Below the pieces are notes generated by a model, which worked only from the letters and a program-made list of their open reading frames with translations, searched no databases and was not told the DNA's origin. A stretch of DNA of 64,000 bases from Piscinibacter gummiphilus (GTDB lineage: Bacteria > Pseudomonadota > Gammaproteobacteria > Burkholderiales > Burkholderiaceae_C). Each line of letters starts with the position of its first letter. Within the stretch, counting starts at the first letter, position 1. A program made the position numbers and the translations under genes. The DNA is taken from assembly GCF_032681285.1 (NCBI RefSeq), contig NZ_CP136336.1:4947001-5011000 (forward strand). Reading direction: 5' to 3'. Shown one piece after another: positions 35,283 through 36,473 of this stretch.

Positions 35283-35337
35283 ATGCTACGGCCTCGCGAA
35301 AACTCGGGAAACGACAAGATTTGAGTTTGCTTATTCG
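35283..35337 (-). promoter_or_regulatory. Putative CysB-type operator and promoter of sbp copy 1
   Basis: A 34-bp element at 35304-35337. On the minus strand it starts CGAATAAGCAAACTC and ends TCGTTTCCCGA; TAGCAT at 35283-35288 stands as the -10, 22 bp after TCGTT. Its 34 bp match the element ahead of sbp copy 2 at 22 positions and that ahead of cysB at 19 positions, by ungapped hand alignment. It ends 52 bp before the ATG. Confidence 0.65.
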
Positions 35338-35368
35338 TTGCCCGAGTGAGAGCCCCTGTTGGCGAGTC

Positions 35369-36379
35369 TTACTTGCTCTTGGTGTAGATCTGGTCAAACA
35401 CGCCACCGTCGGCGAAATGCGTCTTCTGCGCCTTGGTCCAGCCGCCGAAGAGCTGGTCGACCGTGAAGAGCTTCACAGCCGGGAACTGCTTCGCATACTT
35501 GGCGGCCACCTTCTCGTCGATCGGGCGATAGAAGTTCTTGGCCGCGATCTCCTGGCCTTCCGGGGTGTAGAGGTAGTCGAGGTAGGCGGTGGCGACGGCA
35601 CGGGTGCCCTTCTTGTCGACCACCTTGTCGACCACCGCCACGGGCGGCTCGGCCAGGATGCTCGTCGGCGGGTAGACGATGTCGAACTTGCCGGCCCCGA
35701 ACTCCTTCAGCGACAGGTGGGCTTCGTTTTCCCAGGCGAGCAGCACGTCGCCCTGGCCGCGCTCGGCGAAGGTCACGGTCGATCCGCGGGCACCGGAGTC
35801 GAGCACCGGCACGTTCTGGAACAGCTTGGCGATGTACTCCTTCGCCTTCGCTTCGTTGCCGCCGGGCTGCTGCAGCGCCCAGCCGTAGGCAGCCAGGTAG
35901 CCCCAGCGCGCGCCGCCCGAGGTCTTGGGGTTGGCGGTGATGACCGACACGCCCGGTTTCACCAGGTCGCCCCAGTCCTTGATGCCCTTCGGGTTGCCCT
36001 TGCGGACGAGGAAGAGGTAGGTCGAGGTGTAAGGGGAGCTGTTGTGCTTCAGGCGCTTCTGCCAGTCAGCGCCGAGCAGCTTGCCGCGCTCGGCGATTTC
36101 GTCGATGTCATATGCCAGCGCCAGGGTGACAACATCCGCGTCGATGCCGTCGATCACCGAGCGGGCCTGCTTGCCCGAGCCGCCGTGCGACTGCTTGATG
36201 GTCACGTTGTCGCCGGTCTTGGCCTTCCAGTGCTTGGCAAAGGCGGCGTTGTACTCGTGGTACAGCTCGCGGGTCGGGTCGTAGGAGACGTTGAGCAGGG
36301 TCACGTCCTTGGCGGTTGCGATGCCGGCCAGGAGGGCCAGCGCCGAGGCGGCGAGCAGGGTGCGGATCGAAGTTTTCAT
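35369..36379 (-). CDS. sbp: Sulfate-binding protein, copy 2 (Sec signal)
   Basis: A 336-residue periplasmic protein. Signal peptide about 1-23 (MKTSIRTLLAASALALLAG, then TATA/KD), with no RR motif. The mature part has LLNVSYDPTRELYHEYN and KQSHGGSGKQARSVIDGIDADV, and is clearly paralogous to copy 1, with KVVDKKGT and GGWTKAQKTHF shared. The two may differ in ligand (sulfate or thiosulfate), which I cannot tell. It has its own promoter-like element upstream and a 117-bp gap to copy 1. Confidence 0.92.
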   Translation of the reverse strand: MKTSIRTLLAASALALLAGIATAKDVTLLNVSYDPTRELYHEYNAAFAKHWKAKTGDNVTIKQSHGGSGKQARSVIDGIDADVVTLALAYDIDEIAERGKLLGADWQKRLKHNSSPYTSTYLFLVRKGNPKGIKDWGDLVKPGVSVITANPKTSGGARWGYLAAYGWALQQPGGNEAKAKEYIAKLFQNVPVLDSGARGSTVTFAERGQGDVLLAWENEAHLSLKEFGAGKFDIVYPPTSILAEPPVAVVDKVVDKKGTRAVATAYLDYLYTPEGQEIAAKNFYRPIDEKVAAKYAKQFPAVKLFTVDQLFGGWTKAQKTHFADGGVFDQIYTKSK

Positions 36380-36418
36380 CGTGGGTGCCGGGAGCCGGAA
36401 TCTGCGGGAATGCGGTGG

Positions 36419-36473
36419 ATGCTAGGGAGCGGCCCCCGATCGGAGAACGAAGAAAACAGCGCTTGCTTGCTCG
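36419..36473 (-). promoter_or_regulatory. Putative CysB-type operator and promoter of sbp copy 2
   Basis: A 34-bp element at 36440-36473, on the minus strand CGAGCAAGCAAGCGC to TTCGTTCTCCGA, with the -10-like TAGCAT at 36419-36424, 21 bp past TCGTT. The -10 hexamer is the same as ahead of copy 1, though the bases around it differ. The element ends 60 bp before the ATG. Confidence 0.65.

What the first reader, a model, noticed from the sequence alone, without database searches (positions are those of the whole stretch)
35283..36473. Two sulfate-binding-protein genes share a 34-bp element and a -10 hexamer in the same layout
Seen: minus-strand 35304-35337 and 36440-36473 agree at 22 of 34 positions without gaps (counted by hand). 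Both carry AAGCAA and TCGTT at the same spacing. Each is followed after 21-22 bp by TAGCAT, and the elements end 52 and 60 bp before the ATG. A -35 at 17 bp from TAGCAT would be weak in both. Known: CysB activates sulfate uptake genes from just upstream of the -35. Inference: this is a CysB operator with an activator-dependent promoter, and each sbp copy has its own start.
Basis: partly seen in the sequence, partly recalled or inferred. Interest (0 to 1): 0.75.

Follow-up and report, generated by a model that had tools for sequence, protein, structure and literature searches.

The report
Fixed-spacing operator at sulfur-uptake genes
Both sulfate-binding-protein genes, and a nearby sulfur-regulator gene, carry the same rigidly spaced switch site beside a weak promoter, and the same layout recurs at sulfur genes in related bacteria, giving a readable binding site for a regulator family whose target sequence has been hard to define.

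Summary
The shared element is real and belongs to a larger fixed frame. Both sbp promoters read: upstream half-dyad, [A/G][T/C]AAG, 15 nt, TCGTT, exactly 21 nt, TAGCAT. A third copy lies ahead of the LysR-type regulator gene at 27541 (27443-27510). The 22/34 match alone is weak (2% of shuffles), but the blocks recur at 21 of 21 sbp upstreams in 11 genomes of the genus. A profile of them then finds ssu, lsfA, rhodanese and regulator genes: 10 of 12 non-training hits at E<=0.01 are sulfur genes; a reversed-profile control has no hit below E 0.27. A motif found de novo in 69 sbp upstreams from the rest of the order has the same shape, with TANNNT exactly 21 nt downstream in 32 of 50. The geometry fits a LysR-type activator: a dyad near -64 and a second contact at the -35. 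Which one binds is untested. It is a known kind of system with an unusually clear operator.

The parts
36466..36486 (-). upstream dyad of the sbp1 operator, CTTAGTTGGTTCGCGAGCAAG
   Evidence: (dyad axis)
36446..36450 (-). TCGTT block of sbp1, at -38 to -34 if TAGCAT is -12 to -7
36419..36424 (-). predicted -10 of sbp1, TAGCAT, 21 nt after TCGTT
35330..35350 (-). upstream dyad of the sbp2 operator, CTCACTCGGGCAACGAATAAG (left arm imperfect)
35310..35314 (-). TCGTT block of sbp2
35283..35288 (-). predicted -10 of sbp2, TAGCAT, 21 nt after TCGTT
27443..27510 (+). third copy, ahead of the regulator gene: dyad 27443-27463, TCGTT 27479-27483, GATACT 27505-27510 (21 nt apart)
   Evidence: R1 hit at E 0.14 in the genome scan and 0.0042 in a smaller scan; sequence; layout
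27541..28479 (+). CysB-family LysR-type regulator, SsuR-type by position and tree
   Evidence: NCBIfam NF009327 over cut-off; CysB and Cbl equivalogs under cut-off
35369..36379 (-). sbp1, sulfate ABC transporter binding protein
34223..35251 (-). sbp2, second sulfate ABC transporter binding protein (59% identical to sbp1 in the genome search)
33365..34198 (-). cysT permease
32464..33357 (-). cysW permease
31391..32467 (-). cysA ATP-binding protein

Best explanation
The element is the operator of a CysB-family LysR-type activator, placed so that the weak promoter depends on the bound activator. One dimer of the tetramer would sit on the upstream dyad CTTANTCG-N5-CGANTAAG (-74 to -54 if TAGCAT is -12 to -7) and the other on the TCGTT block at -38 to -34, over the poor -35, touching RNA polymerase. 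sbp1, sbp2 and the regulator gene each have their own copy. The likeliest reader in this genus is the SsuR-type regulator encoded at 27541-28479, with the CysB-type paralog able to share sites such as sbp and cysI; the signal is presumably lack of sulfate or cysteine. Shown: the sequence frame, its conservation, its concentration at sulfur genes, and the regulators' relationships. Inferred: binding, activation, start sites, signal, and which paralog acts.
For: Blocks and spacing recur at 21 sbp upstreams of 11 genomes: TCGTT in 19, TTGTT in 2; -10 after 21 nt in 20, 22 nt in 1. Non-training R1 hits at E<=0.01: 10 of 12 ahead of sulfur genes. Reversed-column control: 7 hits, best E 0.27. Exact layout pattern: 28 matches against 3 for the reversed pattern in 11 genomes; only the two sbp promoters in the window's own genome. 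De novo motif in 69 order-level sbp upstreams, log-likelihood 492.7 against 121-145 for 10 shuffled sets, with TANNNT at exactly +21 in 32 of 50. Named species: 23 of 27 sbp upstreams with the layout, 0 of 54 controls. The regulator is CysB-family and carries the layout in its own promoter.
Against: No binding or expression data. The classical LysR T-N11-A pair is not conserved. The order profile does not separate E. coli cys promoters from control promoters. R1 missed the cysI operon, which fits the frame only with TTCTT/TACTT for TCGTT and, in 3 of 10 genomes, 22 nt instead of 21. Only 35 of 69 order-level sbp upstreams reach layout score 9, against 5 of 138 controls. Genome scans scored at most 150 of 366-662 first-look candidates per genome.
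Confidence: 0.85

Rival explanations
1. The operator is read only or mainly by the CysB-type paralog (G000:C1:2554802-2555725), and the SsuR-type regulator has little role at sbp.
For: 18 of 31 order genomes with a single CysB-family regulator also have the layout at an sbp, against 13 of 18 with two or more (regulators counted at E<=1e-60), so the frame does not need two paralogs. The cysI operon shares the frame.
Against: The profile marks ssuA, ssuE, ssuD and lsfA and the SsuR-type gene itself, and the window regulator lies beside the transporter operon.
Confidence: 0.25
2. The two sites are alike only because sbp1 and sbp2 are tandem duplicates that kept their old promoter, without a shared regulator.
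For: The proteins are 59% identical and adjacent; the pair alone has a 2% chance level.
Against: The same layout stands ahead of unrelated genes: regulator, ssuA, ssuE, ssuD, lsfA, cysI, and the block-to-block spacing is fixed across the order.
Confidence: 0.03
3. The blocks are a promoter of an alternative sigma factor, or the site of an unrelated sulfur-responsive regulator, rather than a CysB-family operator.
For: The TCGTT-N21-TANNNT part is promoter-like and rigid, and no binding data exist.
Against: The upstream dyad and its fixed phase to TCGTT fit a LysR-type tetramer; a CysB-family gene carries the frame in its own promoter; the targets are sulfate and sulfonate genes, the class known for CysB and SsuR.
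Confidence: 0.08

Closest known systems
SsuR of Burkholderia cenocepacia (J Bacteriol 2007 189:1675 and 2011 193:1843; recalled, not held)
   Same: Gene position beside sbp-cysT-cysW-cysA (PMC7970998, passage); sulfonate genes as targets (recalled); about 44 bp preceding or overlapping the -35 reported as enough for binding (recalled), close to the 41 nt from the dyad to TCGTT here.
   Different: Recalled: motif likeness called limited and ssuR not separately controlled there; here the sequence frame is sharp and the regulator gene, on the other strand, has its own copy. Named B. cenocepacia sequences were not in my trees.
CysB activation sites of E. coli and Salmonella cysP, cysJIH and cysK (PMC11329422, passages)
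   Same: A site upstream of the -35, centred 50-60 bp before the start; tetrameric CysB-family activator; transporter genes as targets.
   Different: No match of the order profile to E. coli promoters beyond controls; E. coli cysB is repressed by its own product at a site overlapping the polymerase site, whereas the regulator gene here has an activation-type layout.
General LysR-type activation sites (recognition dyad plus a contact near -35; recalled)
   Same: Dyad centre near -64 and TCGTT at -38 to -34, if TAGCAT is -12 to -7.
   Different: The T-N11-A pair is not conserved.

Membership tests
CysB-family (CysB/SsuR) operator | lies ahead of sulfate or sulfonate assimilation genes | tested here: met
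   10 of 12 non-training hits at E<=0.01 in the genus; sbp, cysI and cysT genes among 10 order hits
CysB-family (CysB/SsuR) operator | bound by the regulator in vitro | not testable with these tools
   needs gel shift or footprinting
CysB-family (CysB/SsuR) operator | sequence likeness to E. coli CysB sites | tested here: inconclusive
   no separation of 7 E. coli cys, ssu, tau and sbp promoters from 9 controls; E. coli consensus itself called very weak (PMC11329422)
LysR-type activation site | dyad upstream plus contact near -35 at fixed phase | tested here: met
   dyad axis best of those tried, mean 4.86 of 8 against median 1.95; fixed 15- and 21-nt spacings
LysR-type activation site | conserved T-N11-A | tested here: not met
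   columns -32 and -20 are variable
SsuR (regulator at 27541-28479) | gene beside sbp-cysT-cysW-cysA and grouping with such genes | tested here: met
   with 13 of 14 sbp-adjacent regulators, support 95/83; with Burkholderia cysTWA-adjacent copies 100/100, long-branch warning
SsuR (regulator at 27541-28479) | needed for sulfonate use | not testable with these tools
   needs a deletion mutant
CysB proper (regulator at 27541-28479) | over the NCBIfam CysB equivalog cut-off | tested here: not met
   388 bits against 436; the second copy also fails, 369 bits
CysB proper (regulator at 27541-28479) | N-acetylserine pocket residues | tested here: met
   T100, T149, E150, Y164, W166, T196, Y197, A227, A244, A247 kept, T102 is Ser; the pocket is also kept in the second copy where I read it, so it does not discriminate

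The most novel reading that the evidence does not exclude
One rigid 52-nt promoter frame (ATAAR-N15-TYGTT-N21-TANNNT with an upstream inverted arm) is the common operator of CysB and SsuR throughout this order, kept in phase while its letters drift from TCGTT to AT-rich TTATT forms. It fixes how the tetramer sits on DNA (dyad plus -35 contact) in place of uncertain 19-bp half-sites, and the SsuR-type gene activates itself through it, a loop kept after the gene left the transporter operon.
Probability: 0.45. Interest if true: 0.62.

Novelty: new member of a known kind. Interest (0 to 1): 0.5.

Why it matters
[quoted passage not shown] Here two spacings, 15 and 21 nt, hold across many genera while the letters change. 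That gives a simple rule for predicting the sulfur regulon in these genomes and a concrete test of how the tetramer contacts DNA and polymerase. In this window it also separates two predicted transcription starts for the two sbp genes and points to a feedback loop on the regulator gene.

Tried and rejected
Chance match: rejected by the genus, order and control results, although the 22/34 match alone could not exclude it (40 of 2,000 shuffles).

A simple AAGCAA-N{5,25}-TCGTT pattern in the own genome gave 23 matches against 22 for the reversed control, so those two words without fixed spacing say nothing.

A link to E. coli CysB sites by profile: no separation from controls.

R1 did not find the cysI operon. 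I first took its promoter for a different element, then saw the same spacings with TTCTT for TCGTT. The layout score was applied after I had looked, so the cysI result is descriptive.

The matrix test counted 10 of 29 sbp upstreams at 12 bits or more against 3 of 145 control windows; some of the controls may be real sites downstream of sbp (L174), and I did not remove them.

The layout score was designed after seeing the genus sites; its controls are reversed and reverse-complemented windows of the same regions. The order sample is 69 of the 89 non-own sbp places that I count (20 not fetched). In one search, 27 upstreams were scored from the 24 loci with an sbp match among 80; those cut by a contig end or starting late in the protein were dropped by the script. 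The tree used 20 of those 80 loci plus 8 genus rows; the tree used 36 rows.

While re-checking I mended one statement: I had taken G003, G004 and G010 to lack the layout at the regulator gene; one search shows a weaker form there (ATATG-N15-TCGTT-N21-CAGAAT).

Literature: the searches in the open library listed no paper whose title or shown abstract describes this frame. The two B. cenocepacia papers most likely to are not held, so I make no claim of first description. Papers seen as passages only: PMC11329422, PMC5002191, PMC7970998, PMC8435198, PMC10179380, PMC9023270, PMC13131220.

Full report
What was claimed and what is there. The two 34-mers agree at 22 of 34 positions, the best ungapped match between the two upstream regions. 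AAGCAA, TCGTT, TAGCAT and the distances to the ATGs are as stated, except that TAGCAT starts 15 bp after the 34-mer; the 21 bp is counted from TCGTT and is exact in both. Shuffled pairs reach 22 of 34 in 40 of 2,000 trials, so the pair alone would be weak evidence.

The element in the genus. The protein search found sbp1 in 11 of 11 genomes of the genus and a second sbp in 10. In the 21 upstream regions the same blocks appear: TCGTT in 19 and TTGTT in 2; the AA of the ATAAG block in 20 of 21; a TA-led -10 hexamer 21 nt after the TCGTT block in 20, and 22 nt in one (second sbp of G002). Further upstream lies an inverted arm, consensus CTTANTCG-N5-CGANTAAG. Among the axes tried this one has the highest mean complementarity, 4.86 of 8 arm pairs against a median of 1.95, and the profile also matches the reverse strand there at two sites. 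The classical T-N11-A pair is not conserved.

Other genes with the element. A sequence-only profile (R1) of the 21 sites, run over the 11 genomes, returned the 21 training sites and then 12 further hits at E<=0.01. The genes downstream are ssuA (G001, G003, G010), ssuE (G001, G002), ssuD (G001), a 1-Cys peroxiredoxin that I label lsfA (G002), a rhodanese (G003), the SsuR-type regulator (G005, G007), an NMT1-family binding protein (G001) and a TonB receptor (G003) (regulator positions; the G003 ssuA and G002 ssuE are named by reading alone). That is 10 of 12 sulfur genes; I leave the last two out. Between E 0.01 and 0.16 there are 10 more: one inside a coding frame of G002, one on the reverse strand of a known site, three at a hexapeptide acyltransferase gene (G000, G008, G009), and lsfA, TonB-receptor, TauD-family, rhodanese and regulator genes. 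At most 150 of 366-662 first-look candidates per genome were scored, so weaker sites can be missed. The same profile with its columns reversed gave 7 hits in 6 of the 11 genomes, the best at E 0.27. As an exact pattern (RYAAR-N15-TYGTT-N21-TANNNT) the layout occurs 28 times in the 11 genomes, against 3 for the reversed pattern; the window's own genome has two, the two sbp promoters. Of the 28, 18 are sbp, 3 ssuA and 4 ssuE; single matches lie ahead of a sulfurtransferase-like gene (G006), a sigma-54-type activator gene (G002, 311 nt away) and, probably by chance, a beta-glucosidase-like gene (G009) (these three labels are my reading of the sequence).

The regulator's own promoter and cysI. In the window a third copy stands ahead of the regulator gene: CTTAATCG-N5-TGGATAAG, 15 nt, TCGTT, 21 nt, GATACT, 30 nt before the ATG. 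A loose version of the layout finds these three sites and nothing else in the 64 kb. Six of 11 genomes have this arrangement; G003, G004 and G010 have a weaker form (ATATG-N15-TCGTT-N21-CAGAAT) that R1 did not list; in G001 and G002 an R1 hit lies ahead of lsfA, which stands next to the regulator gene. The cysI promoter reads ATAAM-N15-TWCTT in all 10 genomes examined (the G005 contig ends too early), with a TA hexamer after 21 nt in 7 and after 22 nt in 3, and an alternating A/T run between; in 6 of the 10 a TauE-family permease gene lies between the site and cysI.

The order. With a stricter filter, R1 over 150 genomes of the order gave 12 hits at E<=0.01 in 9 genomes, two of them in the window genome. 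Of the other 10, three lie ahead of sbp, three ahead of a cysI-like gene, one ahead of a cysT-like gene, one ahead of a TonB-receptor-like gene, one 528 nt ahead of a CysB-family regulator, and one ahead of an unidentified gene (labels by reading). A motif search from scratch (expectation maximisation, width 32) on 69 sbp upstreams from the order, with no genus sequence in it, found ATAA...TTATT/TTCTTGGTT/TTCGTT; log-likelihood 492.7 against 121-145 for ten shuffled sets. The -10 was not part of that search, yet TANNNT stands exactly 21 nt after the motif in 32 of the 50 regions that score 14 bits or more, and at the other offsets from 8 to 39 at most 3 times; background 55 of 8,083 positions. 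With a layout score, 35 of 69 regions reach 9 against 5 of 138 controls; at 9.5, 23 of 69 pass with N21 and 0 to 2 with N17-20 or N22-25. In loci from named records, 23 of 27 sbp upstreams reach 9 and none of 54 control windows does; they include Sphaerotilus, Pelomonas, Janthinobacterium, Duganella, Burkholderia, Paraburkholderia and Caballeronia. In the Burkholderia copies the letters have drifted (ATTAA, TATTT, TAGACT) while the spacing holds.

Which regulator. Each genome of the genus has two CysB-family regulators at E<=1e-60. Both match the subfamily model and miss the CysB and Cbl equivalog cut-offs; both are nearest to CysB chains in the PDB. The window copy keeps the N-acetylserine pocket residues listed for CysB, with T102 a serine. 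In B. cenocepacia ssuR follows sbp, cysT, cysW and cysA (PMC7970998, passage). In a tree of 36 rows the window copy falls with 13 of 14 sbp-adjacent regulators (support 95/83) and the second copy with non-adjacent ones; one sbp-adjacent row (G115) falls elsewhere (adjacency judged from the coordinates). With named species the window copy joins the cysTWA-adjacent Burkholderia copies at 100/100, with three rows that have no cysW nearby inside the same group, and the second copy joins the other Burkholderia copies; the tool warned of long branches. So the window regulator is SsuR-type. But 18 of 31 order genomes with a single CysB-family regulator have the layout at an sbp, against 13 of 18 with two or more, so the frame is probably older than, or shared by, both.

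How it most likely works. If TAGCAT is -12 to -7, TCGTT lies at -38 to -34 and the dyad at -74 to -54, centre -64: where a LysR-type tetramer would bind with one dimer upstream and one at the -35. The -35 itself is poor (3 of 6). The CysB structure paper reasons that the tetramer binds two shorter half-site pairs, that a 60-bp duplex could reach all four domains, and that the 19-bp half-site is hard to reconcile with the structure (PMC11329422, passages). The frame here could be such a site. Binding, activation, signal and start sites are inferred.

Same and different. It works like an E. coli CysB or Burkholderia SsuR activation site. By sequence it cannot be matched to E. coli: the order profile does not separate E. 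coli cys promoters from controls. Recalled and not read: the J Bacteriol papers of 2007 and 2011 report about 44 bp at the -35 as enough for SsuR, limited motif likeness, and no separate control of ssuR. Here the regulator gene is on the other strand with its own activation-type site, whereas E. coli CysB represses its own gene.

Verdict. CysB as the name is not established; CysB-family, probably SsuR-type or shared, is.

Noticed in passing
L096:9905-9961 (G000:C1:1999904-1999960, + strand): A full layout match (ATAAC-N15-TCGTT-N21-TAGCAT) lies only 6 nt before the ATG of a hexapeptide acyltransferase gene, so its transcript could be leaderless; R1 also hits in G008 (L081) and G009 (L080).
   Followed up: partly
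L132-L141, upstream of cysI in ten genomes of the genus: The cysI promoter carries a conserved alternating A/T run between the TTCTT block and the -10.
   Followed up: partly
L041-L051, upstream of the second CysB-family gene: A different short conserved block (TGG/TGATTTAATC ... CATACTGC ... ATATG) lies just before this gene, possibly its own control site; not the sbp-type layout by eye.
   Followed up: no
L087 (G003:C20:51976-52036), L092 (G004:C1:157065-157124) and L160 (G066:C1:460186-460235): R1 hits ahead of TonB-receptor genes, possible outer-membrane uptake routes for sulfur compounds.
   Followed up: partly
L370 (G002:C45:180969-181020): An exact layout match 311 nt ahead of a sigma-54-type activator gene, reminiscent of the CysB-SfnR hierarchy of Pseudomonas putida (title seen in a reference list).
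   Followed up: no
L374 (G006:C1:1870984-1871035): An exact layout match 32 nt ahead of a sulfurtransferase-like gene (label by reading).
   Followed up: no
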